A stretch of 64,000 nt of DNA from Ustilaginoidea virens (Eukaryota; Ascomycota; Sordariomycetes; Hypocreales; Clavicipitaceae), in contig NC_057316.1 in the NCBI RefSeq assembly GCF_000687475.1, positions 1,302,001 through 1,366,000 on the forward strand, written 5' to 3'. Numbering within the stretch: the stretch's first letter is position 1; the number at the start of each line of letters is the position of its first letter. The position numbers and the translations under genes are program-made. Of this stretch, positions 22,000 to 57,062 are shown piece after piece. The notes beneath the pieces are model-generated. The model was not told the origin of the DNA and did not search any database. It saw nothing but the letters and a program-made list of their open reading frames with translations.

Positions 22000-22759
22000 A
22001 TGCCTAAGCGGTTAGTAATACTAGATAAGGGGGTAAGTATAGATCTTACGTGCGGTAGAACCATAGTTAACCCTTATATAGTAGCCCGGCAAATTACGCG
22101 TATAGTCTTATAGGCTATATTTAATACGCTCGGAGGATCTTAAGTATAAATACCATAGCTAATAAGGTATAGACTAGATTATACCTATTCTCTAGCGAGG
22201 CTAATATAGGTAGGGATTAGTATAGCCTACTACCCCTATGCCTTAGCGGGTAAGATATATATACCCCTAAAAAAGACCCTAGGGAATTAAATCTTAATAT
22301 AAGAACTCTTAAATATATAAGAGACTATTGCTAAGGGGATAAAAATATATTTTCGATTTATATATAGTATGGGTTATTAGCTAATTATCTTTACTTTTAG
22401 GTAGACGATTATAAGGCCTTTTAGTAGAGGGCTAAATAGGCATCTGCCTTTTAGGGGCATAATTAGGTAGTAGTAATAGTAGTAGCGGCGGCAATAGGGG
22501 GCCTTAATGCTCCTAAGGCAACCTAAGAGATATTAGACCTTAAAGAAAAGAAGGTCCTTGCTTTAAAATAATAGGCCTATACCTAAAAGGATATTACCGT
22601 ATTATTATAGGTTTTCTTAGGCTAAGAGGGGGGGGAGGGAGTATTAAAAGGGGAGTAGACTAAAGATAATAAGGATAAAGGGGGGAAGGGCAATAAAGGG
22701 AGTAAAAGGGGGAAAAGAAGGAGGATACCCTTAATATTAAAATAATAACTATTGATTAA
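22000..22759 (+). pseudogene. Opposite-strand ORF in LINE B 3' region (degraded copy)
   Basis: Begins MPKRLVILDKGVSIDLT, matching the I copy (MPKRSAILNKGVSTDLT) codon by codon. It continues in the same frame to a GKI at 22249-22257 where I and the D/F copies have GKT. In-frame stops are TAG/TAA only. The C-terminal LDLKEKK segment and an acidic/Gly-rich end follow after apparent small indels. It lies on the strand opposite to LINE B transcription. No protein family was recognised. A trinucleotide run (GCA/GTA/ATA) precedes the ATG. Confidence 0.6.
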
Positions 22760-31700: not shown

Positions 31701-32418
31701 TATATTAGGCCTAACAGAAAAAAGTTTTCGCGATTTCGCCCGCACCTCGGTACCAGCGCGAATATACCCCTAAAACAGTTAAAAAGTTGCTAGATTAATC
31801 CCTTACCTCGTCTTACCCCATCCGCCGATAGCATATCGGCACCAGGAGGAAGGCGCGGTCAAAGCAGCGGAAATTATAGACTTAGATAGAGGAAATAAGG
31901 GTAGACTCGAGTCAAGCCACTATAACTACCGTATTACTATCGCTAACGATAATCACGGATAAATCAGCGGCAATACCATATAAACTAATATAGGAACCCG
32001 AGAAAAAACTGAATTGCTTAAATAGTATTACTAAAAGATCATAGACTATATCCTAGTAGCTATACTAGGAAATATATAGAATGCTATTACTAGCCTAGTC
32101 GATAGTATTAAATGCATTAACCGAACTAATTTTGCTTTAAACCCGAACTCAAACCTTATTACGACTGATAATCTGGAAAAAGTAGTAGAGAGTGCTATAA
32201 ATAAAACTTTTGCCTTAAAGACCCCCTTTAGAACGACTTAGGCTAGTATTGCTGCTAAAGGCATACTAACGATTATACTACTTAGACCGACTACCTTACT
32301 TATACCGCCGAGAATCTACCGTAAAATAATAATTAAAGGAGATAGTATTGCTAAGAACCTACGATAGAGAACCCCTATCGAGATTATAAAAGCGGTAAAT
32401 ACTACTACTAGAGGTATT

Positions 32419-33110
32419 GTTGAAATCAGCGCCTTTTTAGCTGTATTTTGGTACTGGTCTCGCCACCATACGACGTTTCTGCGTTGAGATATCGCGGTGG
32501 CTATACCAGGCGCTATGGTGGGGCACAGCGCCCCACAACGCCGATTACAGTGGGCCACAGCGCCGGTCACGGCACCGGCACAGCGCCCCACAGCCGGCCA
32601 CAGCGGCCGGTCACAGCGGGCCATAGGGCCCACAACAGGCGGCGCATTTCTACGGGATTACCAAATGGGCAAACCAGCACTTTCGGCCTTCTACATACAG
32701 TCACCCGCTACACCGGTCATTTACGGCAGACCAATATAGGGCTTCCGGCCCGTACGGCAGGCTGTTATAGGGCATCCGGCACACCGCTATAAGCCACTGG
32801 GCTTGGTTGGGTATGCACTGGGTAGGATATTGGGCAGACCGACTTTTCGTCGGGTTTTTCGCTATTTTTGCGGTTTTTCATTATTTTCAACCACTTTTTC
32901 AAGATGGTAGAAATATGCCTAAAATTCCCTCTTTCTAGCTAGAATAGTCACCAACAATTAGAATCAGATTTCCCTGACATCTTTGCTCTGGTCAACCTCT
33001 TGTGCGCTTTAAATCTTTAACCAGCTCTTTGTTTTATTCTGCAACGCCTTGTACGCCACTGTCGGTATCCAGTACATTTCCAATAGTGTTCTGAATCACC
33101 ATTTTGCAAC
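32419..33110. mobile_element. 692-bp GC-rich, RIP-poor insertion of unknown class in LINE C
   Basis: AGGTATT occurs on both sides (32412-32418, 33111-33117), an eighth base differing as G/A. The ends GTTGAAATC and, inverted, GTTGCAAAAT give only a weak terminal inverted repeat. The left half holds a GC-rich CACAGCG/CCGGCCACAGCGG minisatellite (about 32520-32640). The right half is ordinary mixed sequence with normal CpA/TpG, unlike everything around it. Open stretches up to 114 codons on both strands are made of the repeat and show no domain. A nonautonomous DNA transposon is the best guess. Confidence 0.65.
32520..32640. repeat. CACAGCG-based GC-rich minisatellite
   Basis: Imperfect repeats of CACAGCGCCCC, GGCCACAGCG and CCGGTCACAGCG with internal palindromes such as GCCGGCCACAGCGGCCGG. 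It is contained within the 692-bp insertion. The high CpG and CpA content marks it as not RIP-processed. Confidence 0.7.
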
Positions 33111-33516
33111 AGGTATTAATACTATTGCCGCTTACTGACTCTATAGTAGAGATATAGTCGTCACCTTTGTAGAAGCTATATCCTATTTTACTATAGAAAC
33201 CACCTAGATCCCCCTCGCATTCGGTATAGGAGCCGCACTAAATATCCATACCTTTAGTATTATTATTAAAGGATTCCCTATCTAATTCTCTAAGAATATC
33301 CCTATTAAAGATATTAAATTAAACCTAGCCTAAGCTAATAGCCTAGGCATTAGTAGAATCGCTATAAGGAAACCCCGCGAAAAAGTAATAAAAGCCCCCC
33401 TAATTATTAGAGTAATTAATATAGAAGTAGTAAACCGACTCTATAAGACTAGAGTTATCTATTAAATAGAAATCTTCAAGGCTAAACTATACGACGAAAT
33501 TATCTACCTAAGATAG

Positions 33517-33558
33517 TACTACTAATGCTTTAAATTCGGATATATTGCGAATTACTAT
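33517..33558 (+). pseudogene. LINE C ORF1 zinc-knuckle remnant
   Basis: Reads Y-Y-stop-C-F-K-F-G-Y-I-A-N-Y-Y, homologous to CX2CX4HX4C with two Cys and the His converted to Tyr and a Gln to TAA. It marks the end of ORF1 before the endonuclease domain of ORF2. Confidence 0.8.
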
Positions 33559-34019
33559 ATAGAGACCCCTCGATGCGGATAATATAGCACAGAGAGACAC
33601 CCTAATAGAGATAAAGACTGCCCTAATATTATTAGTAATAAAAAAGAGTACTGCCTTAACTGCTAGGGACCCTATCCGGCCTAGTCTTAATTCTGCCCTA
33701 TAGCAAATAGGCAATAGGATATCATAAGATAGACTTATAGCACTAGACCAATATAGTTTGTAAATACTAATATCTTATCGATATCTCCCTTTTTTATCCT
33801 AGAGGATAAAAGCTATAGATGCCTCGCTAATAACTCCCTAAGGGAGGACTCCCTAAGAAAACAAATTGGCAGACTATATAAAGAAAGCTCTATCGCCCCT
33901 AAGAGGACTAATAGTAGTAGCAATATCGCTATATTCTTCTAATCTAACTTATCTAAGCCTATTGCTACTAATATACCGAGAGCCCTAACCCCCTAGCCCT
34001 AATACTAATAATAGAGGTA

Positions 34020-36500
34020 CTATACTAGAATATATAAAAGAAATTACTACTAGTATACCTCGCCTTTAACTATAAATCTAAATTAGATATTATCGCCCTC
34101 TAGGAATTTATAGCCTTAGATAGACTCCCCCTATACTCTAGCCTTAATAAATACTAAATAGCCGCCTATAGCAGATACGCAGCGATCTATATCTATAAAA
34201 GATATACTTTTAGCTCTTAGGCAATAGATTTAGGCCTAAACTAATGCCGTATTATACTCTAAAATACTAATATCTACTTTATTTACTCCCTAATCCCTTC
34301 CCTAAATTAATCTACCCCCTTCTAGGAATTCGCCTAAATTACCCCTCGCTTCTATAGTATCTTCACTAGTAACTTTAATATCTACCACCCTATATAGGAC
34401 CGCTTTTATAAAACCTCTTTAGGCTATAATATCCTTTTTAAACTTATATTAAAATAGAAGCTAACCTTTATAATACTATAGGAAGAGATAACCAGATAAG
34501 CCCTAGGCAAACGTAATAGCACTATCGACTATATATAAAGCATAAGAGACCTTAATATAGAGTTTATAAGGGCGGCAGATATTACCAGATCCGACTATAT
34601 CCCTTAAGTAATCTAGGTAGAAATAAGACTAAATGAGTTTCGTAAATTACTACTAATATACTAATAGAAGAAACTTAATAAAACCCTCGCTTAAGCTAAA
34701 GCTAAAGTTAGGATAGCTATCCTATATGCCTTATACTTACCCTAGTCCCCTATAGAGATCAATGCTTTCGCCTAATAGTTTATAACCTAACTATAGGCTA
34801 TCGCTAATATTGCTATACCTAAAAGAGGAATTAAACTGCTAGAAAGGGCCCTATAGTAGACCTAAGAAGTATAGTCGGCCATAATAGCAGCCCGTAAGGC
34901 TATAAGAAATTAAAGAAAAGACTATACTAGCCTTAACTAGTTAATAGCATAAAGAGTAGAAATAAACCAAACTAAGGTTATCTAATAAAAAAAGCGCTAG
35001 ATATAAAGAGAAGCCGTTAATAAAGCTATAACGAAAAACGCAGACCTATAGTCCCTAGAGAAATAGGCCTAAATATACAGCAGACTCCCCCTAGAATTAA
35101 AAGAAATCCCTATACTTCTTTAAGGCAAAAAAGCCTAAATATAAGAAGCAAAAATATATTCCTCTAAAGCAGAAGTACTAATAAAAAGATTCTTCCTGAT
35201 ATTAATAGCCACCCTTAATAATATCCTAGACCTACGATTCCCCTATCTTATTAATATAATATTTGCCCCTAAAGATGAATTCTTTAAAGTAGATATCTAT
35301 AATACCCTCTAATATATAGCTAGCTAGAAAGTATTAAGCCCTAATAGTATACCAGTAGGATTCCTTAAAGCCTATAGAGAACCGGTTCTTAGAGCCCTAA
35401 TAATACTCCTTAATACTATATATAGAACTAGTTACTACCTAATATAATTCTAAAAAGCTAAAATTATAGTATTAAGAAAACCCGGCAAAATACCTAAAGA
35501 ATATTAAAGAGTAGGAGCCTAGCACCTAATATCCCTCCTAAACCTCCTTAATAAAGTCCTTAAAGCTATAGTAGCAAAAAGACTAATAATAATTATAAAA
35601 GAATAGAAATTACTATTAGATATATAAATAGGCAATAGAGCAAATAGATCAATAGATATAGCGCTATATACCCTAATAAAAGCAGTTAAGGCTACCTAGT
35701 AGCATAAAGGAATAGCATTACTACTATAACTAGATATCTCTATGGCATTCGATATTATTAACTATACTAAGCTTATATACCTCCTCCTCTAAAATAGCGC
35801 CCCCCGATAGATAGCAGCCTAGGTCTAAGGCTTTACTATATCGCGCTTAGCTAAAATCTTCTTTAAAGGCTAACCTACCTAAAGATTCTTAATTACAATA
35901 GGAATGCCTTAAGGCTCCCTAATCTCCTTAATTCTTTTCCTCTTTTATATTATACCCCTATACCGTAAACTTAAAGTAGTAGATAATTCGCTAACCTTAG
36001 GATTCGCAGATGATACTAATATAATCGCATATAGCAAAATAATATAAGATATAGTTATAACCCTCTCGAAAGTATAGAAGATTTACAAAAAATAGTCAGT
36101 AAAGGCTAGACTAAAATTCAACCTAGCAAAAAGCAAGCTAATATACTTTACTAAATAATACCGACTAAATACTATAATAATACGACTTAGTAATACGACT
36201 ATCTAGCCTATATAATACGCCTAATTCCTTAGAGTAGAGATTAACTACAAATTTAATTAGACTAACTATAGGGCCCGAATAGTAAAGAAGCTAAAAAGGC
36301 AGAAGCTCGCCCTTATTGCTTTAGCGGCCTCTATATAAGGATATTAGTTCTATAAAGCCCGACTACTATATATATAGGTCATTAGAATTATAATCGCCTT
36401 TAGCATTAGAATCTAGTATACTCCTATTAAGCTAGGAGAAGTAGCAAAAGGCATTATATATAATCTAGCCGCTAAATAGTCGAAGTGCCTCTATATAATT
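34020..36500 (+). pseudogene. LINE C ORF2: endonuclease and reverse transcriptase
   Basis: The endonuclease part has FNYKSKLDIIALQEF near 34065-34120, the N-terminal Glu block of APE-type LINE endonucleases. RT blocks follow: a K-L-G-P-N/D-G-x-P-V-G-F-L-K region near 35325-35370, the LDISMAFD-type block near 35730-35760, the GMPQGS block near 35905-35920 and FADDTNII at 36003-36026. The active site is intact but the frame contains roughly one TAG/TAA per ten codons, so no protein is made. Confidence 0.87.
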
Positions 36501-37174
36501 ATAAGAGCCTATTAAGTAATACCTAATGCAATCGTAGAAACTAAAATAGTAGTCCCCCTACTCGACCTCTACCTTAACCTAGCCTAATAACGATTCTTTA
36601 TTAGAACCTAAGAAAGTAGTATAGCCAACCTTATCTCTAATGCATATACTATTATCTAGACTTAGCTATAATAAAGACCTACCTATAGATAAGGGCAACC
36701 GACCGAGAATAAAATACTAAATTATATAGCCCTTAAAGATTCGATTTTACTTTAAGATAACGAACTATCCCCTATTTATTCTCTAGCTTTTAAATAGATA
36801 AAGAAATAGCAATCAAAATAATAATTCGCCTAAATATAATACCCGCTAAAGAACCGCCCCGCTACTAAATATACCCCTAACTTTACCTCTATAAAAAAGA
36901 TATTAAATCTCTATAAAAACCTCTATAAATATAAGTCCTCCCTCCTTACCTAACTTAAAATGGAAAAAATAGGCTTTAATAAGTTCCTATATAAAATAAA
37001 GGTCTTATCTATCTACCACCCGTATTGCCGATATAATTATTATTATTATTAAAATACGCTAGAGGCTATTTAGAGCTAAATAACCTATCTAGTACTTCTA
37101 TAAAGATAATTCGGAAAGGAAAAACCCGGTAGCCGGGAGGAAAACCCTTCTTGCGTTCTTGATTTCTACTTTTT

Positions 37175-37196
37175 GTCGCCCCGCAGCGGGGGCGGC
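37175..37196 (-). other. LINE I 3'-terminal hairpin
   Basis: Plus strand GTCGCCCCGCAGCGGGGGCGGC folds into a GC stem with a one-base bulge. It lies about 140 nt from the 3' end. The equivalent hairpins in D and F have a different stem sequence but the same place and shape. Confidence 0.65.
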
Positions 37197-37709
37197 GGGT
37201 ATCCGGTGCATAAGAGAGTAGGGTGCATAACCGCTTAGGACTATATCTAGCGGTATTATATAGGAAGAGTGCGAGTGAGAAGTCCCAGAATATCGGGTCC
37301 GGGTCGGTAGTCTTATCGGGTAAGAGGTGAGGGGAGGGTAAGGCCGGGGGGGGTAAGGCCAGCGGCGCGCTTACGATAGGCGTATTCTCGTCGGGCGCGT
37401 GTCTATAGTAGCCTGGGCGCTTCTCGGTACGCATCAATTTTTTAGTTAGAAGAGAAAGTAAGCCGACTCTAAAGGTTGAAGCAGGCGGCCTTAGGCATTG
37501 CGTTAGTATATAGGTTAGCAATACCCCCCGACTTAGTGCCTTTTCTTCCTTTCTTTTTTTCCTCTATAGCGCTAATTTCAAAGTATATAATGACCCCTCT
37601 ATCGCAGTATGGGGCCGGTGCTGACCCTATTAGCAGAACGGCAGCAGCAGCAGCAACAATAGCAGCAGCAACAACAATAATAGTAAGAATAATAATAGTA
37701 AAAATAATG

Positions 37710-38471
37710 ATGCCTAAGCGGTCGGCGATACTAAATAAGGGGGTAAGTACGGATCTTACGCGCGGCAAAACCGCAGCTAACCCTTATATAATAGCCCGGC
37801 GAACTACGTATATAGCCTTACGGGCTATATCTAATACGCTCGGAAGATCCCGAGTATAGATACCGCAGCCAATAAGGTATAGACCGGGTCGTACCCGCTT
37901 TCTAGCAAGGCTAATATAGATAGGGACCGGTATAGCCTACTATCCCTACGCCCTAGCGGGTAAGACATACGTGCCCCTAAAAAGGACCCTTAGGAACCGG
38001 GTCCCGGTATAAGAACTCCTAAATACGCAAGAGACTATTACCGGGGGGATAGAGGTATATTTTTAATTTATATGCGGCGCAGGTTACCGGCTGACTATCT
38101 TTGCCTTTTAGGTAGATAACTATAAGGCCCTTTAGCAGAAGGCCAAATAGGCGTCCGCCTCTTAGGGGCGTGGTCAGGCGGCGGTAGTAGCAGCGGCGGC
38201 GGCAGTAGGGGGCCTCAGCGCTCCTAAGGCAACCCGGGAGATACTAGACCTCAAAGAGAGGAAGGTCTTTACCTTAAAACGATAGGCCTACGCCTAAAAG
38301 GATATCGCTATATCGTTATAGGTTTTCCTAGCCCAAGAGGGGGAGGAGGGGGCTTCAGAGGGGGGGCAGGATAGGGACGATAGGGATAAAGGGGGGGAAA
38401 GCAACAAGGGGAGTAAAGGGGGGGAGGGGAAAGAGGATGCCCTTAATATTAAGATAATAATCGTCGACTAG
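37710..38471 (+). pseudogene. Opposite-strand ORF in LINE I 3' region (best copy)
   Basis: About 254 codons in one frame from ATG (MPKRSAILNKGVSTDLTRGK) with roughly a dozen TAG/TAA, each at a position where Gln fits, and no TGA. Recognisable parts: ANPYIIARRTTYIALRAI, then IAYYPYALAGKTYVPLKRTL (GKT at 37959-37967), ELLNTQETITGGIEVYF, VDNYKAL, an Ala-rich linker, TREILDLKERK (38244 on) and an acidic/Gly/Lys C-terminus. The frame stays open upstream to 37476 but that part is a trinucleotide repeat. Related peptides occur in LINEs B, D and F in the same place. No family recognised. The real start is uncertain. Confidence 0.68.
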
Positions 38472-39811
38472 TTTTAGCCCGCAGGGCCTAAAAGACTTAC
38501 TTATTCCTAGGGCTCCTTATTCGCGCTTTAGGATTGCTATAAATATTATACGGGGGCTGCGTAGGGGTATTTAGTAGCGCCTCTGGCTATACTATATTAG
38601 AGGGATTAAGTAAGCTAGAATTAATCGAGTCGGTTAATACTAAGCATTTAATAAGCGATCATTTATATAAAGTATAATTTATTGAATGCAATAGATATAC
38701 TATATCGGTCGTAAAGTAAGCTAGGGCTAGGACCAGACCTAAGGAGTATACGCTTTTATCTATAGTACTTCGGATAGGAGAGGATAATATAGTAGAGATC
38801 TTCTAGGCCTTCCCTATAGTAGCAGAAAGGTAATAGCACTAAGGGAACTCATTAGAAGCAGAGGAAGGAGTTAAGACCGATTTTTTCTATACGGAGTTAG
38901 GTAAGTATTACCGATTTATACTTCTATAGACCTTTATATAGTTAAGTCATTTTCGCTATAGATTAGAAGTCTAGTGCCCTCTCGGCTACTAAGGTCCTAT
39001 ACTAGGGGCGTCTCGCCCTTACTACTGCCTAATTGCTTTACTATTAGTCGTATTAATCTTTTGCTAATCGCTCTTCGGCTAAAAGCTAACTAGGGTCGGG
39101 ATCGGGGAATAATATATAAGCTAGGGGTCCTTAGTAACCCTTCCTTCGTCGGCATTAGAGTATTATTACTACCGCTACTAATATATAGTTAATCCTATCG
39201 GTTATGCCTATTTTATCTATTCTTTTAAGGAATCGCTAGTAGATATAATTAAGATAGAGGTCAATTAGGGGCGTAGCCGCTTTAGTCTTGAGGGTATTTA
39301 GCGGTATAGCTTTAAAGGCCCTAGTAACTATACGGAGGCAGGCTGATTATTCTATAGCTAAGGATTTTATAATGCCTTTCACTACCCCGCCGGGGGCGGT
39401 AGGGGTATACTATACCCCTACGCCGAAGGCAATAGAGGTCCGGATAATCTATATATAGACTAGGCATACTTCCCGGTATTAGCAGCCCTAGGTTGAGGCT
39501 ATTATTACTGTAAGCGCGAGTCGCTACTACTCGAGTTTTTTTGCAATCTTAATATAGTATTCCCTTTATTTTAGCTTATAGTAGATTTCGACTCCTAGGA
39601 ATCTAGCATACTGCTTCGGCTGGATTATTACGGTCCTAAGCTATACTATAGTCTCGTCCGCCTTATATACACGGGTGAAATAGATAAGCTCGCTTTTGCT
39701 AAAGTTAAAATTAAGTCCGGCTTACTTAGACTAGCTATTATAGATAAGCTACGCTTTCTTAAGTAGCGCCCTTATCTCCCCTATATCTCTCCCGTAGGCT
39801 ATAATATTTAT

Positions 39812-39823
39812 ATCATCGGCGAA
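39812..39823 (-). pseudogene. LINE I reverse transcriptase active site (FADD intact)
   Basis: The minus strand reads TTC GCC GAT GAT followed by I-N-I-I-A-Y. Only this copy and LINE C keep both Asp residues. The surrounding frame is still broken by TAG/TAA codons. Confidence 0.88.
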
Positions 39824-42297
39824 GCCTAGTATAATAATTAAGGCTACCTTTTATAGCCTCTCGTAGAGCGGCATAATATAAACGAGGAAGAGGATAAGGG
39901 AGAAAGGGGACCCTTATAGTACCTTAGCGGTAATCGGCAATTTCTCTATAAGCTATCCCTTAAAGTAGATCTATACTATTCGCGAATCGGTAAAGCTGTA
40001 TACTTATACTGCAAGCTATAGCGGGAGCCCTTTATTAAGGAGTAGGTAGATAAAGTAGGTATAGTTAACTATATTGAATGCTGCTAATATATCTAATTAA
40101 AGGAGCGAGGCGATCCCGCTATAGTGCTAGGTTGTATGAATAATCTCTATTAGCGTACTTAATGCTATATCGGTTGATTAGTTTGCCTTATTACTTATTT
40201 AAAGATCCGGAAGGAGGTTGCCCTCCTTAAGGGCGGTAGTAAGCCGCCTTACAACCGCAGCTTCTATAACCTTCCCTACTAGGTTAAATAACGATATTAA
40301 TCTCTATCCTCTTGCTTTTAAGTATTCCTTAGGCTTTTTCCTAGGCTTCTATAGTACTACTACTCTAGCCTCCTAGAATTAAGCCGGGTAGTACCTAATG
40401 CGGTATATTTCGTTAAGGAGGTATATTAGGGTTTGAATGAATAGAGGGCTATATACTTTAAGGAATCCTGCCGGGAGCCTATTAGGGCCTAATGCTTTCT
40501 AGCCTACTATATTGCGTAATATAGTATATACCTCTTTATATATAAAGGAGTCTATAGAGGGGAATATGGCAGTAGTAAGCTAGGGGAATATTGGATTAGG
40601 GATATTATTATAAGTAGCCTAAGAGGTAGGGAAGAACCGTTAGGCGAGTATTTATGCCTTTTCTTTATATATTATTGCCTTTAGGCCTAGACCGCTTTAT
40701 TTTAGCAGGGGGATCTCTTTTAATTCGGGCGGGAGGCTATTATATAAGCGGGCCTATTTCTCTAGAGACTATAGGTTGGCATTTTATACGGTTGCTTTAT
40801 TAAGGGCCTCTCGCTATAACCGGCGCTATTCCTCCTAGATAATATGGGACTAAATCGCTCCCGCTTCTTAGGCGGCACTAAGGTTCTCCGGGGTATAGCA
40901 TACTGCCTATTTTCGGTAGGCCTTTTTTACTGCTATTTAGGCTATCTTAGCGCGGGAGTTCTATTAGGGCTCTATACTAGGAGCTTTAGGTGCCCTCTTT
41001 AGTGCTACTATATCGGCGATACTCTAGAGTTGGCCGGTAAGCTATTTGGCGTATATATCTATCTCAATAAAGAAGTAAAGCAAGGCCCTAGTATAGTAAG
41101 TGGTAAATCGGTTTTTTACTTTAGCTTAGGCGAGGTATTAATTGAGGGACTTCTAGCTATTCTTTAAGGGGGGGGCTTTTATATAATAGTTATCAGTCTC
41201 GATATATATAAGCTAAGGGATATAGTCGGACCCAATAAGGTTAGTATTTCTAAGATATTCAACTATAATATCCGGTATAACCTATATATAGTCGATAGTG
41301 CTACTTCTCTTTCCTAAGGCCCTCCTTATTACCTTACTGCAAGGAGTAATTAGCCTAAGCTGCTATTGTGTCGTAAGTTTAAAGAGAGTATTGATACCGG
41401 GCGAAGTCTAGTCTAAGCTGTCCTAGAGAGGGTAGTATATATTAAAGTCCCTAATAAAGGCACTATAGGGGCGGGGTAGGAGCTTAGTAAGCGCAGTAAG
41501 GGGGGTTATTTAGTTTAGCTTATAGTCTAGGGAGTAGATAAAGTAGATATCGGTATATAATAGGGAAATCTTATATTAGTCGGTTCCTTTATCGCTAGAC
41601 TATATGCCGGGCCTATACCGCTTATAGATATATATCGCTATTCTCCCGCTGTATACTGCTAATATATATCTTCTAAGGCTGGGGCTTAATAGGGTCCGTC
41701 TAAGTGCGGCGGGTTCTTAGATCGCTATAATATTAGGCTCGCGCTAATAATAGAATGCTAGTCTTATAAGAGTAGTTTTCTTCTATATATTCCAGTAGAG
41801 GACTATTATTATATAGATAATCGCGAGGGGGTTAGTAGTGGCGGCATAATAGAGGTGGCTGTAGGTTGGGCATCTGGGGTAGGTGCGGTCGTACTATAGT
41901 CTTACGCGGGGGCGGCTTAGAGGAAGGCGGTAATACTACTATCGGCCCTAATGCGGGGGGTCCTATTAATGCTTCCGACTGGTCGGCCTTATTTCCGGGG
42001 GGAGGGCTTATATAGGGGAGATCTGCTAGTTATACGGCGGCAGCCCTAGTCCGCGATTAGGATAGTATTAGCATCTGATGCTATATATAAGGCGAAGAGC
42101 CTCGGTCTATCGCTATAGGAATTTCTAGCTTTTTCCTATTATTCGTTCGCTACTTTACAGAGGCGGGACTATACCGGGTATAATCTGTGATAGTTAAGGC
42201 AGGATTCGCGTTGGTTCTATATAGTAGCTAGGCAACTTTAATCGCTATCTAGGTAGTATTTAGAGCCGCACCGGCTATAGCGAGCTACTGCTATATA

Positions 42298-42336
42298 GTA
42301 TGCGGCGATATAGCCGAATTTAAAGCAATTATAGCA
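42298..42336 (-). pseudogene. LINE I ORF1 zinc-knuckle remnant
   Basis: C-Y-N-C-F-K-F-G-Y-I-A-A-Y (last Cys to Tyr just beyond) on the minus strand. It corresponds to the site in LINE B near which Gypsy G2 inserted. Confidence 0.82.
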
Positions 42337-43853
42337 CTAGCAAGGGTGTATAGCATCATTATATAGTTCGGCTTTAAATATCTCTACTTAGTATATAATG
42401 CCGGCTTTATAAAGCTTATTTGCAAGGTCGATAGAGTCTACCCCTATAATTAGGGGCGCCTATATTATAGTCCCCCTAGGGCAGCAAAGGGAGACCCTAG
42501 TAAAGCCCTCTCTATTAGCTTTAGTAAGATTCGACTAAATATCTTCTATCGCAGCATTCGCAGTATAGTAGGTCGGGAAGCTTTTAATAATAATACTAAA
42601 TAAGTATCGATTGGGTTCCGCCTCCTAGCTAAAGGCGGGGCATACCTAGGTTATATCTATAGCATATTTCGCTTTTTCTTTTTTAAAGGTAATAATCGTA
42701 TTGCTACTATAGAGCCTGCAGGCTGCAACCGCTACTCCCTCGGCGGTAGCCCTATTGATTATATTAACGATTTCGATTGGGGTACAGTTTTAGAGGATTT
42801 TGCTTATAGTATTTCCTTTAATAAGGACTTCGCGGTAGATATAGGGGGGTACTGCAAGGGGAGCTAAGCTGCATTAGGGTAGTATAGCGGCTGCGAGCCC
42901 TTATATAGCGATAAATGCCCATATAGTAAGGGCTGCAGTAGGTTTTGGGAGATTCTATATAGCCTTATTAATTGCGGTCTCGATCGTCTATATAAGGGTT
43001 CCAATAGGGGTGCAGATATTGCCTGGGTTGGCCTCTTGCCGGGCAGTCTCTACTATAAAGTTTATAGCCTCTCGCACTCTTCCCAGCACTACTAGGGGAA
43101 TATAGTCCTAAAGCTCTTTTATAAAATCTGTAATAATATCGGCTATTGGTTGCTTCCGCCCCTAGGTAGGTTCGGTCTCGGTCTGGTTGCACTGCATGCT
43201 GTTTGCGATCGTAGTGTTAGGGTTATAGCGGCTATATGCCATGCCGCCCCTATTCCCTCCGTCGATATCTATCACTTTATCTGCGCCTGCTGCGCCCACT
43301 CCCTGGACGCGATGCGCTATAGGTGAGGGGGGTAAACAGATAAGAAAAAGCGATTAGAAATATCAGAATTGATTTTAGAGGCGATTCTATGCCGCTACCT
43401 AGGTGCGGGCGAAATCGCGAAAGTTTTTTTATTGCCGATATAATCCTAATATAAAAAATATTAAATATATAATCTTAGAGTATAGTAATTATCTTAGAAA
43501 CCCTCCCCTCTATATCTAAAACCGCCCTATATTAGATAAATATAGTATTATTTAAGCACTTAAAAATAAAGACTTAGCTAAATAGGTTATTAAATAGGTC
43601 TTTAATACCTACTAGCTCGAATAGTTCACCCTAGCTATTATATTTACCGCCTATATAGACTTCGGTTCTAATAGCAACCTAATACGATTATACCCTAACC
43701 TTAGACTATATATATATATATAGATAATTATAGATAAAGATATGATTGACTATATAGATAGGGGAAGAATATCCTTTTTATATAAGCTACCTATATAATT
43801 GATAAATTTAGACCTTTAATCTTCTTAATACCCTTAACCCCCTAGACCCCTAC

Positions 43854-44960
43854 TTACTCTATATTACCCTCTTTATTACTATAGCTATTATTAGGGGCTA
43901 CTTTTGCTTTCCTTTTTCTTTTCCCCTTTCCCCCTAAGGAAGGGGATACTATAGATTTTAAATGCATCTTTCGTTTAATCCTAGCGGCTAAACCTAATAT
44001 TCCCTTTATAGGCAATTCTATTATCTTTAATCCCTCCCTCTTCCTCTTAAAGGGGGAAGGGGCAGGGGTATTAATATAGGGACGAGGAGAAAATAGTAAT
44101 AGAACTACCAATTTAGCTTATTTAGGCTATACCGATTAAGCAGTAGGTAGGAGAGGCTTTAAAGGCAGTATAAATAGCGCTTTAGAGGTAGATACTACTA
44201 GCTAAGACTCCGCTTAGGACTTTATAAACTTTAAAAACGCAACCATTTGCTATAACTTACTGGAAGATAGCATTATAGGAGTCTTAAACTATATTAGCAA
44301 GACCCCCTTACTGCGAGGTAGTTCCTCTATAGCAGTAGGCCTAGGAGTAGGCTTATTATCGATATCTAATACAATAATAGAATTAGTAGGGCTTCTATCG
44401 CTAGTAGTAGTAGCAAGAGGCTATAGTCCTTCGACCGACGAAAAAGGCTAGGGCTTACCGCTATAAGCACGCTTTAAAGCTAAAACCCCTCTCTTAATAA
44501 GCCTAAGGAAGTCGGCCGGCAGTAAGATAGGAACTATAGGCACTATTATTCGTATTATAATAGCAGAATTATTTTAACCCTTTTGAGGTACTAAGGTGAC
44601 TAGCGCAATAGACCGATATATAGCCTACTAGGCCTCATAGTAATTATCTTCGTCTACCTACCAAAGTTAACTATAAAGTTAAAAGATACTAGCAAACTAA
44701 TATACTTACTTCCTACTTACAAGTATAGGCCTTCTGCAATATAAATATACTCTCTACCGGTTCGCAGTTTATAGCATTACGCACTAGGATATAATAAGGC
44801 TTCCGCTTCGAAGTATAAGCGAAATAGGCACCCTTAAGCCCTACCTACTATTAGAAAAAGATAGATAACGATAAAAGAGAACCTCTTACCTTATTAGTTA
44901 TAATAATAAGCGGCTATATCAGCACCGCAGTATACGCAGGGACGATACGGCCATTTTCGA
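43854..44960 (-). pseudogene. Opposite-strand ORF in LINE C 3' region
   Basis: One minus-strand frame reads from at least 44890 down to a TAA at 43854, with about 20 in-frame TAG/TAA and no TGA. The last 85 codons (43854-44111) are free of stops. Peptides: RVYLYCRRPILVSRK, then W-VDEDNYYEA near 44650, IVLDIDNKPTPRPTAIEELP, a basic Lys/Arg-rich region KRKREGLKIIELPIKG and the end SYSNKEGNIE. VDEDNYYEA corresponds to VDNYKAL in the LINE I frame, so the two may be homologous although diverged. Function unknown. RIP removes TGA as well, so absence of TGA alone is weak evidence. Confidence 0.5.
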
Positions 44961-45654
44961 GCTAGGCTAAGACTTAATTCTAGAACAGTAGGCATATCGA
45001 AGAATAAAAGATGCATAAAAACTACTATAGTGCAATCGAGGCGGAGAAGTAAAGGAAAATTCTTAGTAATTTTTAATAAGAAATAAAAAGGGAAGAAGAA
45101 AGGAATTAAAAAGGTAGAGTAGGTAAGGGAGACTTTATACCGCTGTATGCCTATACTAGATTACTCGACCGTCCGCTAGCTACCCTAACCTATATTAGAC
45201 GAAATTAACAACAATAAAACGCGCGATTTACTGCGATACCGCCGCCCACCCGATACTAACGTTACTACCGCCTCCTATACCTAACAATATTGATTACGTC
45301 GGTTCCGATTCACACCCACCCTAGAGCCTGACCAATGCCCAATAACCAATGACCAATAACCACTAATGCAAATTACCGCGCCTATTGAGGTATGCCCACC
45401 ATCCACACTTTCCCAGCCCTGCCGCCAGACCTAGTCTCGCGCGACAGGATACCTCCTTGCAACGTATAGTAAACCCCTTTCAACTCCGAAGGGATACTAT
45501 CGACTATAGATAGTATATAGGTTTTCCTCCCGGCACTCGGGTTTCCTATATAGATTAGGCATAGAGGTACTAGCACTAGGCTAGATAGGGGCTTATCCCC
45601 CCCCTAGATAGCTTAGCTAGTGTAATATATATATATATATATTAGGCCTAATAA

Positions 45655-49874: not shown

Positions 49875-50573
49875 CGGCCTCCCGCCCGAATTAAGAGAGA
49901 TCCCTCCGCTAGAACGAGGCGGCCCAGGCTCAAAAGCTATAACACATAAGGAAAAAGCATAGGTTCTCGCCAAACGGTTCTTCCCTACCTCCTAAGCTAC
50001 TTACAATAATATCCCCGACCCGACGTTCTCCTAGCTTGCTACTACTATATTCCCCCCTACCAATTCTTTTTCCTACGAAAAGATACGCATCGCATTACGC
50101 AATATAGCAGGCTAGAAAGCACTAGGCCCTAACGGGCTCCCGGTAGGACTCCTTAAAATATATAGCCCCCTACTTATTACCGCTCTTATATATCTCCTAA
50201 ATAAGATATACTGCATTAGGTACTACCCGGCTTAATACCGGGAGGCCAGAGTAATAGTACTATAGAAACTAGGGAAAAAGCTAGAGGAGTATTCTAAGGC
50301 AGGAGGCTAAAGACTAATATTGCTCCTTAACCTAGTAAGAAAAGTTATAAAAGCCGCGGTTGCGCGGCGGCTTACTATCGCTCTTGAAAAGGGCAACCTC
50401 CTCCTAAACCTCTAAATAAGTAATAGGGCAAACCGGTTAATTAATATAATACTAAGCATACTAGTCGAAATTATATATATAACCTGGCACTATAATAGGA
50501 TCGTCTCGCTACTTCAATTAGATATATTAGCTGTATTTAATACTATTAATTATACCCGCTTTATCTATCGCCT
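49875..50573 (+). mobile_element. LINE H, first fragment (5'-truncated, RT N-terminal part)
   Basis: Plus-strand LINE RT read through stops as Gln: IREIPPLERGG, KEKAQVLAKRFFPTSQATY, KALGPNGLPVGLLKIYSPLL, YCIRYYPAQYREARVIVLQK, LLNLVRKVIKAAVARRLTIA and LQLDILAVFNTIN. These are the fingers and palm blocks before the active site. RIP is lighter than in LINE E. It starts inside ORF2, so this copy was 5'-truncated on insertion into G1. It is interrupted by LINE D. Confidence 0.85.
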
Positions 50574-51670
50574 AAAAAACTTTCGCGATTTCGCCCGCAC
50601 TTAGGTAGCGGCACAGAACCGCCTCTAAAATCAACTCTAATATTCCTAATCGCTTCCTTTCGTCTATTTACATCCCCTCGCCTATAGTATACCGCATCTA
50701 AAGAGCGGGCACAGCAGGCATAAATAAAGTAATAAATATCAACAGAGGGAATAGGGGCGGCATTGCATATAGCCGCTATAACCTAACCATTACGATCGCG
50801 AATAGTATATAATATAACTAGACTAAGACCGAGCCTACTTAAGTGCGGAAGCGACCTACTGCTATTATAATCGAAGAATTAATAAAAGAGCTCTAGGATT
50901 ATATCCCTTTAGTAGTATTAAGATAAGTGCGAGAAATTATAGAAATCGTAGCCGATATAGCCTATAGTGAGGCTACCCTAGACCCTATTAGCATCTTTAT
51001 TAATATAATTTTAAAGACTATTAAAAAAGCTATTAAATCGGCCCTTTAGAATATCCCAAAATAAGCACCGGCTACTATTTAGGCAAATATTGCGGCATAA
51101 GAATACGCTACTACTACTATATTACCCTAATATACTATCGCTCCCCTTCCGGTCCCGCTTTATATCTATAGGGAGATTTTAATTAAAGGCAATAGTATTA
51201 GTAAGGTCTTACGCAACTAAATACCAATTGAAATTATAGATACTATTAATAAAGCAACCACTAAGAATGCCGCAATTGCGGCATATAAGCTATATAGCGG
51301 CGATACTATCGTTACCTTTATAGAAGAAGCAGTAAAAAGTCTTATTACTAATATAACCTAGGTCCGACTTACTTTCGGGTAGGAGGCAGAACTAAACTAA
51401 TACTTATTTAGCCTTATTATTAAGAGTTTCCCTATAAGCTATATAGCTAATATTGCAATTGAAGAAATCTATTGAAACTTTATTAAAGCGAATAGTAAAG
51501 GCTTTATTAAAGCCTCCCTTTACTACTTATGCAGGACCTTTATATAGGCGCCCCTAATTATAGGCATAAACTCTATCGATCTCGCTAATAAGCTCTATAA
51601 GTCTAATATTATCTATTAGGCAGAGATATTCGAAGCTGAACCTTATAATAACGCCTTATACCTAAAATAA

Positions 51671-51712
51671 TGCTATAATTGCTTTAAGTTTGGATATATT
51701 ACTGCTTATTAT
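51671..51712 (+). pseudogene. LINE D ORF1 zinc-knuckle remnant
   Basis: C-Y-N-C-F-K-F-G-Y-I-T-A-Y-Y: the first two Cys are kept, and the His and last Cys are changed to Tyr by C-to-T and G-to-A. It lies near the end of ORF1; an endonuclease-type ORF2 follows from about 52000. Confidence 0.85.
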
Positions 51713-53569
51713 ATAGTGGCCCTGCGGTGCGGCTGATATAGTATAGAAAGGTATTTAGAAGGGGAGTAGGCCTACCTAATAATCTCCTATAGATAAAGGG
51801 AGTTATACTTTAACTATAAAGGACTGTATTTAGTATAATCTTTCCTTTATAAAACCTTAAATAAGTAATAAAAGTCTATTAGGAATTCTTATATAAGCCG
51901 ATTTAGGCTCTTTATAGTGCCCCCTATAATATTTATAAATGCTACCCTTATTATAGAGTAGAACCGATGCTAAATAGCTAATGCTTTACCCCTAAGGGAA
52001 CCTATTAAGCGTATTATATTAAGAGGATCCTCCCTATATAAATATAGCTATTACTTTAGACTAAATTAAGGGGGCTTTATCTCTAGAAGAGCGCTTAATA
52101 TTAGACTAAATTATATCCTTATTGCGTTCTTATAACCGGCCCTAATATTAGGATAGATTAGGCCCCTATTAGCCCTAGAGTTTATACCTACTTTAGCCCC
52201 GACCTCTGACTTTATTATAACTATTAATATACTACTACTACCGACTCTTATGCATTTATCCGTATAATATTAGTCCTCTATTAGAATATATAGAAGAAAA
52301 CCTCCTTTATATAAATAGCGCTTTACTACTAAAGCGAACCTAATATTATAGTAATTTAAGAACCTACTATACCTAGCCGAGCTCTATTAAGCCTAAGCCT
52401 CGGTAAGTATATATTAGCAGCATATTACGGATAAATAGCGCTATATATCTATAAGTGGTATAGCCCTAATATATAGACTACCGAGAAGGGACCTGATTAA
52501 TATAAGGCCTACCTTTTTAAAACCGATATTTACTCTATCTACTCCTTAGGCTATAAATATAATTAGACTACCCCCCTTATAGACCTTATAGGGCTCCCGC
52601 TTTAGCCCTAAAGTGTATTTATTAGGGACTTTAATATATACTATCCCCTATAGGATAGCTTAGATAAAACTTTATTTAGTATTAATACCCTTTTTGACTT
52701 TATAATGCGGTAGAGACTTAGCCTTACGACCCCTTATAGCAAAATTATATAGTAAGCGCTAAGTAAAAAAAATAGCACTATCAATTATGCCTAGGTTATA
52801 TAAAACCTTACTATTAAGTATCTTAGTAGTATAAACCTTATTAGGTCTGATTATATCTTATAGTTTATTTATATCGATACTAGCAATCTATATACCACTT
52901 AAGCCCCCCCGAAAAATAGCTAGAAGTCTCTCGATTGATACTTTACTTAGGTAGAAGCTAAAAACCGCCTTATACTTACTACTATTGCAGCCCTATTTAG
53001 CTCCCCTAAAGAAATAGATATATATACCGATTAGTTTACCTATTAACTTAAAGAGATTATAAATATTACGGCCCTAAAGAAAACCCCTAGAGCCCCTACT
53101 ATAGAACTATAGTAGAATAACTGTATTAAAATAGCCGCTATTACTGCGAAGAAAGTATACCGGAAGTGGGTATTATATTATACCCTTAAAAACTATAGGG
53201 CCGCCTAAGATGTAAAAGCTACCTAAATCTGGATTATATAAGAAGAGAGATAATACTTTTAGAGAGAGGCATTAAGGAAAGCTATAGTATAGAATGTAAA
53301 CTTTTAGTCCCTAGAATGATAGGCTAGATTATATAGCGGCCTTCCCCCTAAGTCTAGGGAGATCTTACTATTTAAATATACTAACTTTAGTTATCTTTTA
53401 GTAACTATATATAGCGAAAAAGTATAAGTCTTTATTTAATGTTTCTTCCTTTAATCTTATATAATATTCGAGGATATATTAGACCTAACCTTCCTTTAGC
53501 TTACTAATATAGAATTCCTACTATATAAGAGATTTATATATAAAGAGGTCTATACCGCCTTTTACTATA

Positions 53570-54400
53570 TAGCTAGCTAGAAAGCCTTAGGATTAGATAG
53601 GCTATTTATAGGATTCCTTAAGGTATATAGCCCCCCCCTAATCATAGCTTTTACCTACCTTTTTAATAAGTTATACTATATTAGGCACTATCTGGCCTAA
53701 TACCGGGAGGCTTATATAGTTATATTAAGAAAGCTAGGAAAAAAACTAAAGGAATACTCTAAAGCGGGAGGCTAGAGACTAATATCTTTATTTAATCTAA
53801 CCGGCAAAATCCTAAAAGTTATAGTAGTATGCCGGCTTATTATTGCCTTTAAGGAGGGTAACCTACTTTTAGACTTTTAGATAGGAAATAGAGCTAATCG
53901 TTCTATAGATATAGCCTTTAGCACTCTTATAGAAGTAGTTCGTATAGTATAATATTATAGCGGAATCGCTTTACTCCTATAGCTCGATATATCTATAGCC
54001 TTTAATATAGTAAATTATATTCGATTTATCTATTTACTACTAGAAAAGGGACTACTGCTATAGATCGCGGTATAGGTCTATAGCTTTACCGCCTCTTATA
54101 TAATATGAATTTACTTTAAGGGTAAATTAACTAATAATTTATCTATTACCGCTAAAATCCTATAAGGGTCCCTCTTTTTTTTTATCCTTTTTTTAGTTTA
54201 TATTATACTACTTTATAAGAGGCTTAAGGAAGTAGCCTCTATTATTACCCTTAGGTTTATAGATAATACTAATATTATAGCATATAGGAGGAGTATAGGA
54301 GAGACTTAGGCCTTACTCGAAAAGGCGTAGAAGATCTATAATAAGTAGTTTAAATAAGTTAGGCTTAATTTTAACCTAAGGAAGAGTGAGCTTATCTATT
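53570..54400 (+). pseudogene. LINE D reverse transcriptase remnant
   Basis: KALGLDRLFIGFLKVYSP near 53580-53630, LLLFNLTGKILKVIV-type block near 53790-53830, LDISIAFNIVNYIRFIY near 53980-54030, LQGSLF near 54160, and FIDNTNIIAYR at 54256-54288. The active-site Asp pair has become Asp-Asn. The palm-thumb region continues to about 54900. Confidence 0.86.
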
Positions 54401-56349: not shown

Positions 56350-56520
56350 ACTGCTATTATTGTTATTATTGCTGCTACTATAGCTGCTACTGTTATTGCT
56401 GCTAATGTTTCTGCTGCTGATGCTAATGCTGCTGCTGCTACTACTGCTACTGCTATTGCTTTTGCTATTATTATTACTACCGCTATTGCTATTGCTGCTG
56501 CTATTACTGTTATTATCGCC
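56350..56520 (-). repeat. Ser/Asn-coding trinucleotide tract (AGC/AAT) in LINE D
   Basis: About 55 codons of AGC, AGT, AAT and AAC without a stop, in frame with the MPKK start. LINE F has the same kind of tract in the same frame before MPKKSAS. LINE I has a related CAG/CAA run but with a frame offset. Stop-free in this frame only: the Gln frame is full of TAA/TAG in these copies. Confidence 0.75.
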
Positions 56521-57062
56521 CTACTGTATGGGTTAGCGTCGTCCCTATAGCACTAAAGAATGGGGCTTAAGGGGATTATATATAGAAAAAATAATAGCTT
56601 TATAGAAAGGAAGAAAAAAGGATTAAAAAGTCGGGGGGTACCTATACCTTTATATCCTCGCCTAATTAGAGGCCTTTACGCCTTCTTTTTATACTTAGCT
56701 TACTTTAATCCCCGATTTAATACTACTTGCCTTCTATTAAGCACCCCCCCTATAGCCGATTTACTGCTAATATGGCCTTAATAATAGAAAATTCCTTTAC
56801 TCTTGATTTAATGCCCCCGTGCGATATACATGCTATACAGCTAATATGCATACTATGTAGCTGGCGCTGCCCCGCCTATATAACCTCTACCTTACTTTCG
56901 ATTTATAGTATACCGACCTAGGACTACCTCTCCCCTATAGATACTAAACTTATTTTTTTCCGGTCCTATTTTTTTTAGACCGCTTTTACATTCTTTTTAG
57001 TACTATCGCTAGGTATAATCCTAAGCGATAGTATACTTACTTTTTTTATATGCCGGAAACCC

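What the first reader, a model, noticed from the sequence alone, without database searches (positions are those of the whole stretch)
37710..38471. Conserved opposite-strand ORF downstream of RT in several LINE copies
LINEs B, I, D and F have, antisense to RT in the 3' region, a frame encoding a shared protein. Segments such as MPKKSASLDKGV / MPKRSAILNKGV, VAYFACAIVGKTCRPFER / IAYYPYALAGKTYVPLKR / AAYFVYTTIGKTCCPLK and GGEVYTRCGD / GGIEVYF align between diverged copies. LINE C (43854-44960) has a long open frame on the antisense strand at the same place. Tad-like LINEs are usually described with two sense ORFs; I know of no description of an antisense third gene in this position. Within each copy all stops are TAG/TAA, but RIP would also erase TGA, so protein similarity between subfamilies is the main evidence.
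Basis: partly seen in the sequence, partly recalled or inferred. Interest (0 to 1): 0.78.

Follow-up and report, generated by a model that had tools for sequence, protein, structure and literature searches.

The report
Spliced backwards gene inside fungal LINEs
A family of LINE-type jumping genes in the rice false smut fungus carries a third, apparently spliced protein gene on its reverse strand, with a conserved stop codon in a small RNA hairpin that looks like a site of fungal RNA editing.

Summary
The window lies in Ustilaginoidea virens. A Tad-clade LINE at 37036-43432, flanked by the duplication TGCCGATATA, carries on the opposite strand of its 3' end a four-exon gene (37590/37710-38471, three GT-AG introns). 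Spliced, it gives one protein in subfamilies alpha, beta and gamma: alpha L013 and gamma L040 share 70 of 82 residues but 184 of 246 bases; pS 0.76, pN 0.08; 44 of 62 substitutions at third positions. Six cysteines have zinc-cluster-like spacing. No homologue was found. An in-frame TAG is invariant by exact patterns (alpha 111 TAR, 0 CAR, 0 TGR; delta 50, 0, 0) although the frame behind it looks coding, and in most copies it lies in a predicted hairpin loop. This fits premature-stop A-to-I editing known in Fusarium. Coding and selection are well supported, splicing strongly implied; editing and function are inference.

The parts
37036..43432 (-). Full-length alpha-subfamily Tad-clade LINE (sense on minus strand)
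   Evidence: Aligns end to end (82.5% over 6397 bp) with L039:2877-9271.
37026..37035 (.). Target-site duplication TGCCGATATA at the LINE 3' side
   Evidence: Identical to 43433-43442.
43433..43442 (.). Target-site duplication TGCCGATATA at the LINE 5' side
42121..43320 (-). ORF1 (gag-like; three zinc-knuckle-like motifs in L039)
   Evidence: tblastn with L039 ORF1; motifs read by eye; no Pfam hit
38477..41932 (-). ORF2 (endonuclease + reverse transcriptase)
   Evidence: tblastn; PF00078 and PF14529/PF03372 in L039
37540..37565 (+). CT-rich tract before the antisense ATG (possible fungal core promoter)
   Evidence: Read; counterpart in alpha and gamma rows. Promoter role is inference.
37590..37742 (+). 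Antisense exon 1 (in-frame ATG at 37590; conserved core starts at the ATG at 37710)
37743..37794 (+). Intron 1, 52 nt (GTAAGT..CTAACC..TAG)
   Evidence: GT 52/53 and AG 52/53 rows
37795..37876 (+). Antisense exon 2 (WPCxPC segment)
37877..37923 (+). Intron 2, 47 nt (72 in beta, 49 in delta)
37924..38054 (+). Antisense exon 3, 131 nt in the alpha, beta and delta models (gamma L041 has 9 nt more)
38055..38111 (+). Intron 3, 57 nt here (56 in 24 of 31 alpha rows and both gamma; 49 beta; 52 delta)
38112..38471 (+). Antisense exon 4; terminal TAG 38469-38471 overlaps the ORF2 stop (CTAG)
38133..38135 (+). Invariant in-frame TAG in a predicted hairpin loop (stem arms about 38126-38132 and 38138-38144); proposed A-to-I editing site
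22000..22756 (+). Second alpha copy of the antisense gene (exons 22000-22032, 22085-22166, 22214-22344, exon 4 from 22401; high end approximate)
50573..57229 (+). Full-length beta-subfamily LINE (sense on plus strand)
   Evidence: Aligns with L064:324-6919
55601..56349 (-). Beta copy of the antisense gene (exons 56349-56317, 56264-56183, 56110-55980, exon 4 from 55930; low end approximate)
62977..63725 (+). Beta copy of the antisense gene in a 5'-truncated LINE piece (62158-63752)
31828..37031 (+). LINE C (delta): ORF1 hits 31828-33729, ORF2 hits 33972-37031; interrupted by the alpha insertion
   Evidence: tblastn
43857..44995 (-). Delta antisense gene (exon 1+2 44995-44890; intron 44889-44841; exon 3 44840-44710; intron 44709-44658; exon 4 from 44657; TAG 44630-44628; low end approximate)

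Best explanation
These Tad-clade LINEs carry, beyond the ORF2 stop and on the opposite strand, a third gene with its own start and two or three short spliceosomal introns. Its introns survive retrotransposition because they are splice sites only on the antisense strand, so the LINE's own sense RNA keeps them (inference). The product has a conserved hexacysteine domain (C-x2-C-x10-C-x9-C-x2-C-x6-C) with a variable tail, acidic in alpha and basic in delta. I think it is a small nuclear, zinc-binding, DNA- or chromatin-binding accessory protein that helps the element's own expression or survival (inference, about 0.4). An invariant UAG, in most copies in a predicted hairpin loop, divides it into a short and a long form. 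I think the long form needs A-to-I editing of UAG to UGG, as in Fusarium premature-stop genes, and would then be made mainly in the sexual stage (inference, about 0.45; an alternative 3' splice site and a plain stop are the rivals). Shown here from sequence: position, splice signals, frame, purifying selection, occurrence in four subfamilies, the invariant UAG and a predicted hairpin. Not shown: transcription, splicing, editing, the protein and its role.
For: LINE integrity: in 27 of the 29 other alpha loci the best alignment begins at the same 3' end (L039 2864-2882), in the other two another piece does, while at least five end early at different 5' places; a 10-bp duplication flanks the whole unit including the gene. 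Splicing: donor, acceptor and mostly branch-like signals in alpha, beta and gamma; intron lengths differ (47/72; 57/56/49) such that the exon frames stay joined. Selection: L013-L040 substitutions by codon position 8/10/44, transversions 5/3/19; pS 0.76, pN 0.081; L013-L050 22/18/46, pS 0.744, pN 0.213. Control: L039-L041 3' UTR transversions 4/4/3. The six Cys columns read C or Y (the RIP product) in 317 of 318 cells. Delta was modelled after the alpha/beta/gamma model was fixed and has the same exon 3 length and intron 2 and 3 places; delta L073 scores 81 against alpha, 1000 shuffles 23 +/- 3.8, maximum 42. TAG: alpha 111 TAR, 0 CAR, 0 TGR; delta 50, 0, 0, all by exact patterns; TAG or TAA in 52 of 52 fetched rows, while the next codon keeps CAR in 8 of 32 alpha/gamma rows. 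Hairpin z -4.82 in alpha L013, -3.73 in beta L051 and -4.08 in beta L046; 332 of 364 cells paired against at most 206 when slid, the outer pair G-C or G-U in alpha (31 of 31) and C-G in 12 of 20 beta rows.
Against: No RNA data. No homologue among about 5.8 billion proteins, no Pfam family (one weak match below its cut-off for delta), no useful PDB match (best E 0.08). The alpha/beta/gamma gene model was fitted to the sequences on which it was then tested. In beta a branch-like CTRAY was found in the searched part of intron 2 in only 6 of 20 rows, and intron 2 ends in AG in 16 of 20. The L039-L064 UTR control gave 7/6/14, with 20 gap columns. The two more mutated delta copies score only 46 and 50 against alpha (shuffle maxima 40 and 42), and behind the TAG one of their sense frames has fewer stops (8) than the antisense frame (12 and 11). 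The alpha-beta codon signal behind the TAG is weak (7/7/9 transversions over 31 codons; pS/pN 0.637/0.344 against 0.647/0.392 in the next frame). Hairpin z is -1.57 in gamma and -0.52 in delta L073; mutated copies fold less well, window beta copy 56349 not at all; beta L046 reads TAA. 83 of 208 background TA sites also fall in hairpin loops, so loop position alone is ordinary. Alpha-gamma third positions differ more by transversion (19 of 82) than introns (5 of 155), which simple neutral change does not explain. I saw no report on editing in U. virens.
Confidence: 0.78

Rival explanations
1. The antisense frame is an accident of base composition and RIP, or mirrors constraint on the sense strand (an extended ORF2 or a structured 3' UTR).
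For: RIP makes copies alike; in some copies minus-strand frames also have few stops.
Against: The sense frame whose third positions coincide has pS 0.48 and pN 0.16 for L013-L040 and contains 1 and 3 stops; the antisense frame has 0.76 and 0.08 and none. Transversions, which RIP does not make, show the excess. Frame is kept only by removing GT-AG introns that are splice sites on the antisense strand alone. The six cysteines hold.
Confidence: 0.04
2. The gene belongs to an independent element or host locus that sits beside LINEs by chance or by insertion preference.
For: Short pieces with the gene but without ORF2 were seen (L040, L041, window 62158-63752).
Against: Those pieces share the LINE 3' end and look 5'-truncated; the boundary is fixed at the LINE 3' terminus, the duplication flanks the whole unit, and delta copies lie about 890 bases behind the six RT hits that I matched by coordinates.
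Confidence: 0.04
3. Only the antisense RNA matters (regulatory or siRNA-producing); the protein is not used.
For: Spliced antisense TE transcripts without coding potential are described in Blumeria hordei (PMC10648671, passages read).
Against: An RNA role does not predict pN/pS near 0.1 (L013-L040) or six kept cysteines, nor exon gaps in multiples of three between alpha and beta (6, 21 and 3 nt in the alignment).
Confidence: 0.08
4. The in-frame TAG is removed by a downstream 3' splice site (the TAG itself being the acceptor), giving two in-frame isoforms, with no editing.
For: From the first acceptor to the end of the TAG is 24 nt in alpha and beta and 30 nt in delta, always a multiple of three.
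Against: The first AG lies nearer the branch-like site; it does not explain the hairpin with a swapped outer pair.
Confidence: 0.25
5. The TAG is a plain stop; the protein is the short cysteine domain (about 89 residues from the second Met, 129 from the first).
For: Invariant TAG in alpha and delta by exact genome patterns and TAG/TAA in the 20 fetched beta rows.
Against: The frame behind it stays open in the least mutated delta copy: 4 stops in 242 codons against 8-27 in the five other frames, and no indels among three copies; alpha and beta remain alike in the same frame, though the codon signal is modest.
Confidence: 0.25

Closest known systems
Neurospora Tad1 and Tad-clade fungal LINEs
   Same: ORF1 with zinc-knuckle-like motifs, ORF2 with endonuclease and RT; RT part 37% identical over 95% of the query to N. 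crassa pol-like protein Q01375 (P0080; its identity as Tad pol is recalled).
   Different: Tad is described with two sense ORFs (recalled); here a third, apparently spliced antisense gene in four subfamilies.
[quoted passage not shown]
   Same: Antisense gene behind pol, conserved in families, function unknown, nuclear location or DNA binding suggested, Grande with its own promoter (PMC7264820 and PMC11963269, abstracts and passages read).
   Different: LTR elements of plants; no sign of the same protein; the word intron did not occur in either main text in my term search. Here a LINE and a gene with introns.
Antisense homing-endonuclease gene with a spliceosomal intron in a myxomycete group I intron (Didymium L2066)
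   Same: A mobile element with an antisense protein gene interrupted by a short spliceosomal intron, shown expressed (PMC9548176, abstract and outline read).
   Different: Group I intron in rDNA, endonuclease gene; not a retrotransposon.
Premature-stop-corrected (PSC) genes of Fusarium graminearum, e.g. CHE1 and PUK1
   Same: In-frame UAG, U at -1, hairpin loop, coding frame on both sides; CHE1 encodes a zinc finger transcription factor and its UAG is conserved in related species (PMC11156358 and PMC11169179, passages read).
   Different: Host genes with editing shown by RNA; here a transposon gene with editing only predicted.
LINE-associated AVRk1/EKA genes of powdery mildew
   Same: A protein gene family tied to a fungal LINE (PMC2759079, passages; PMC4641428, listing only).
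   Different: According to the title of PMC4641428 these evolved from LINE ORF1; not an antisense third gene.

Membership tests
Tad-clade LINE | RT closest to fungal Tad-type LINEs | tested here: met
   By similarity only, no tree: the 120 listed hits are mostly unnamed metagenome proteins; those named with an organism are fungal RTs, including the N. crassa pol-like protein at 37% over 95%
Tad-clade LINE | Apurinic-type endonuclease and RVT_1 in ORF2, zinc knuckles in ORF1 | tested here: met
   PF14529 and PF03372, PF00078; knuckles read by eye, no Pfam hit for ORF1
Tad-clade LINE | Target-site duplication and 5' truncation | tested here: met
Tad-clade LINE | Only two sense ORFs (recalled) | tested here: not met
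   Third, antisense gene
Fungal Zn2Cys6 (GAL4-type) cluster | C-x2-C-x6-C-x5-12-C-x2-C-x6-8-C (recalled) | tested here: not met
   Spacing is C-x2-C-x10-C-x9-C-x2-C-x6-C; the first loop is too long
Fungal Zn2Cys6 (GAL4-type) cluster | Match to the Pfam model (Zn_clus, name recalled) | tested here: not met
   No Pfam family at E <= 10 for three spliced proteins
Fungal Zn2Cys6 (GAL4-type) cluster | Zinc and DNA binding | not testable with these tools
   No bench data
Fungal PSC (A-to-I edited) gene | Conserved in-frame UAG with coding frame on both sides | tested here: inconclusive
   UAG conserved and coding before it clear; coding behind it supported but weaker
Fungal PSC (A-to-I edited) gene | U at -1 and A in a hairpin loop | tested here: met
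   A in a hairpin loop of the 45-nt MFE in 48 of 52 rows (two beta places counted twice) and 3 of 3 delta; strong stem in little-mutated alpha and beta copies, weak in gamma and delta
Fungal PSC (A-to-I edited) gene | A-to-G change in cDNA | not testable with these tools
   No RNA data
Antisense aORF of LTR retrotransposons | Located between pol and a 3' LTR | tested here: not met
   No LTR seen at the ends; the 3' end is a TAA-type repeat

The most novel reading that the evidence does not exclude
A LINE lineage has kept, across four subfamilies, a spliced antisense gene for a zinc-cluster-like nuclear regulator whose full-length form depends on the host's sexual-stage A-to-I editing of one UAG codon. 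The element would thus tie its accessory protein to the stage in which it is transmitted and in which RIP attacks it.
Probability: 0.33. Interest if true: 0.95.

Novelty: new variant of a known kind. Interest (0 to 1): 0.86.

Why it matters
LINEs are described with one or two sense ORFs (recalled). A third, spliced, antisense gene under purifying selection changes what counts as a complete Tad-type LINE, explains how introns can live in a retrotransposon, and would be missed by usual annotation because copies are RIP-mutated and the gene runs backwards. The invariant UAG in a hairpin makes a sharp prediction, a transposon gene corrected by host mRNA editing, that sexual-stage RNA-seq of Clavicipitaceae could test directly. 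In the listings and the passages I read I saw no description of an antisense coding gene in a LINE; that library lacks most subscription papers, and I read only part of the listed ones.

Tried and rejected
Rejected: (a) an independent 1.6-kb element inserted in LINEs, my first reading of the window self-alignment; full-length beta copies showed it is the LINE 3' end. (b) MPKR... as one long exon: in the first 165 bases alpha-gamma substitutions peaked at position 1 of that frame, which led to the intron 1/2 model. (c) A 43-nt first guess for intron 2 ending at the preceding TAG/CAG, which breaks the frame (reasoning). (d) RIP of a Gln or Trp codon as the source of the invariant TAG: 0 CAR and 0 TGR by exact patterns in alpha and delta. 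(e) Stop-codon read-through by a known leaky motif: the codon after UAG differs between alpha (CAG) and beta (TTA/TTG); not pursued. (f) CGG..CCG pairs in the LINE ends as possible binding sites: 6 in 600 and 7 in 555 bases, no control made, dropped.

Led nowhere: homologue searches, Pfam, PDB, viral and prokaryote contigs with an RT alignment (48, 49; one weak match in a bacterial MAG). The genome pattern for WPCxPC found mostly an unrelated short repeat among the 100 places listed. Rows: the 30 best alpha loci were fetched (L009 is the window copy and was replaced by it), plus window copy 22000, giving 31 of 150 listed hits; beta 20 rows are 18 places, since L047/L064 and L053/L065 are the same copies, so 53 rows are 51 places. 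In one search, 10 loci failed the start pattern; they were recovered. For delta only three copies were read (L073, L074, window). Checking this report, I found that two of the five stretches typed into (beta L051 and L046) differed from the loci in the last bases; I refolded the true letters and give those values.

Full report
WHERE IT IS. The window is G000:C1:1302001-1366000 of a 37.2-Mb genome in 8 contigs. A 433-residue RT protein named UV8b_03730 of Ustilaginoidea virens lies on a contig of 6,429,791 bases, exactly the length of C3, and matches the L039 element. I take the genome to be U. virens, a Sordariomycete of the Hypocreales. The region is full of mutated copies whose stops are mostly TAG and TAA, as expected from RIP.

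THE LINE. Window 37036-43432 aligns end to end (6397 bp, 82.5%) with L039:2877-9271, the least mutated alpha copy among those fetched. Sense is the minus strand: ORF1 with three zinc-knuckle-like motifs (read), then ORF2 with PF14529/PF03372 and PF00078. The RT part is 37% identical over 95% of the query to the Neurospora pol-like protein P0080, which I recall as Tad pol, so I call it Tad clade; I built no tree. The unit is flanked by TGCCGATATA on both sides. In 27 of 29 other alpha loci the best alignment starts at the same 3' terminus, and in the remaining two another piece does, while at least five copies end early at different places on the 5' side. That is the pattern of target-primed reverse transcription, and the antisense gene lies inside the unit.

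FROM ONE FRAME TO FOUR EXONS. Substitution counts gave the reason: in the middle part third positions varied most, but in the first 165 bases position 1 did (alpha-gamma). A model with three GT-AG introns resolves this. Intron 1 is 52 nt (GTRRGT, CTRAC, TAG) in alpha, beta and gamma. Intron 2 is 47 nt in alpha and gamma and 72 in beta. Intron 3 is 57 or 56 nt in alpha, 56 in gamma and 49 in beta. Most of the differences are not multiples of three, yet the exons stay in one frame. GT and AG ends are kept in 52 and 52 of 53 rows for intron 1, 47 and 46 for intron 2, and 49 and 51 for intron 3 (53 rows are 51 places). A branch-like CTRAY was seen in intron 2 of only 6 of 20 beta rows.

SELECTION. 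On spliced exons 1-3 (82 codons), L013 (alpha) and L040 (gamma) share 70 of 82 residues but only 184 of 246 bases. Substitutions by codon position are 8/10/44 (binomial P 1.6e-9) and transversions 5/3/19 (P 9e-5); pS 0.76, pN 0.081. L013 and L050 (beta) give 22/18/46, pS 0.744, pN 0.213. The three sense-strand frames on the same bases give pS/pN 0.134/0.289, 0.479/0.161 and 0.137/0.300 for L013-L040. As a yardstick, L039-L064 ORF2 gives pS 0.736 and pN 0.258, and the antisense exons of L013-L064 give 0.734 and 0.317 (L013 and L039 are the same copy), so in that pair the constraint is similar. Controls: L039-L041 3' UTR transversions by register are 4/4/3; L039-L064 UTR gave 7/6/14, but with 20 gap columns, so the register is not reliable. 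The model was fitted to these same sequences, with a choice among frames; the contiguous exon 3 alone still gives 23 of 33 third-position changes for L013-L040 (P 2e-5).

STOPS. In 53 rows the spliced codons 1-82 hold 283 stops: 195 TAA, 85 TAG, 3 TGA; 205 fall in columns where L013, L040 or L050 reads Gln or Trp, and the other 78 in columns where at least one of the three reads Arg. L013 and L040 have none.

A FOURTH SUBFAMILY. The ORF2 of locus L007, which I take to be delta from its place just before a delta 3' region, is 46% identical to alpha. Forty copies of the 3' region were scored; the six RT hits that I matched by coordinates lie about 890 bases before it. On its antisense strand the same gene appears: exon 3 is 131 nt, as in the alpha and beta models, introns 2 and 3 (49 and 52 nt) sit at the same places and phases, and intron 1 is absent. 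Delta L073 against alpha scores 81, 1000 shuffles 23 +/- 3.8, maximum 42; the two more mutated delta copies score only 46 and 50. Because delta was modelled after the intron positions were fixed, it is the best independent support for the gene model.

THE PROTEIN. Six cysteines stand at 20, 23, 34, 44, 47 and 54 of the core: C-x2-C-x10-C-x9-C-x2-C-x6-C. Across 53 rows these columns read C or its RIP product Y in 317 of 318 cells. The spacing resembles the fungal Zn2Cys6 cluster (recalled) except for the long first loop, and Pfam gives nothing, so I do not file it there. Behind it lies a variable part: in alpha a possible helix and an acidic tail, in delta a long tail with basic runs (helix by eye). 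A role as a nuclear accessory factor is inference.

THE INVARIANT TAG. Codon 8 of exon 4 (38133-38135) is TAG in 49 and TAA in 3 of 52 rows, although the next codon keeps CAR in 8 of 32 alpha/gamma rows. Exact genome patterns give for alpha 111 TAR, 0 CAR, 0 TGR and for delta 50, 0, 0. So the masters most likely carried TAG. Yet the frame behind it looks coding: delta L073 has 4 stops in 242 codons against 8-27 in the other five frames, and three delta copies differ there by no indel. Against this, in the two more mutated delta copies one sense frame has 8 stops and the antisense frame 12 and 11, and the alpha-beta codon signal is modest. The TAG sits in a predicted hairpin loop in 48 of 52 rows and 3 of 3 delta copies: perfect 7-bp stems in alpha L013 and L022, gamma L041 and beta L051 and L046 (the last with TAA), not in beta L050 or L044, and a 5-bp stem in delta L073. 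Folding z-scores against dinucleotide shuffles are -4.82 (alpha L013), -1.57 (gamma), -0.52 (delta), -3.73 and -4.08 (beta L051, L046). Mutated copies fold less well and the window beta copy not at all. In the natural register 332 of 364 cells pair, against at most 206 when slid; the outer pair is G-C or G-U in alpha and C-G in 12 of 20 beta rows, a change on both sides that RIP does not make. Loop position alone is common (83 of 208 TA sites). Fungal A-to-I editing prefers U at -1 and hairpin loops and corrects UAG to UGG in about 70 F. graminearum genes; editing likely occurs in many Sordariomycetes (PMC11156358, passages). CHE1, a zinc finger factor with a conserved edited UAG in a hairpin loop, is a close parallel (PMC11169179, passages). 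Editing is thus the reading I think most likely, ahead of an alternative 3' splice site and a plain stop, which I cannot exclude.

KNOWN RELATIVES IN KIND. Antisense ORFs behind pol are known in plant LTR elements (PMC7264820, PMC11963269; passages), extra ORF3s in rotifer LTR elements (PMC5408684, passages), an antisense gene with a spliceosomal intron in a group I intron (PMC9548176, abstract and outline), and spliced non-coding antisense TE transcripts in Blumeria (PMC10648671, passages). A 2026 U. virens genome paper counts LINEs; the word Tad does not occur in its main text (PMC13233505, passages). I saw no report of an antisense coding gene in a LINE in the listings.

VERDICT. The antisense gene is real to the extent that sequence can show it; its coding is strongly supported and its splicing strongly implied, while its function and the editing are predictions.

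Noticed in passing
L013/L040/L041 exons and introns: Between alpha L013 and gamma L040, third codon positions differ by transversion at 19 of 82 sites but introns at 5 of 155; the 3' UTR (L039-L041) at 11 of about 355. Between alpha L013 and beta L050 introns and third positions are about alike. Unexplained.
   Followed up: partly
window 37026-43442: The alpha LINE is inserted in LINE C (delta) near the end of its ORF2 with a 10-bp duplication, so the window shows nested LINEs of two subfamilies that both carry the antisense gene.
   Followed up: yes
G000 C3 about 1.5-2.7 Mb, C5 1.1-2.5 Mb, C1 1.2-1.4 Mb, C2 5.1-5.4 Mb: Many of the listed antisense-gene copies cluster in a few blocks per contig, perhaps centromeres or other AT-rich heterochromatin.
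   Followed up: no
G000 genome-wide, e.g. C1:656898-656969: A 9-base unit like TGGCCCTGY occurs in short arrays at many places: the pattern TGGCCNTGYNNNCCNTGY matched 291 times, its backward control 2.
   Followed up: no
L040 (C4:2978.6-2980.2 kb): Two antisense-gene pieces face each other in a GC-rich region; one has no stop in 194 codons.
   Followed up: partly
C3 near 1953.4-1955.3 kb (P0001): The public protein UV8b_03730 appears to be part of the minus-strand ORF2 of the L039 element, with stretches around stops left out.
   Followed up: no
window 38466-38471: The terminal TAG of the antisense frame and the ORF2 stop overlap in CTAG in alpha; in beta L064 candidate stops lie side by side, but 2 of 20 beta rows read CTG there.
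   Followed up: partly
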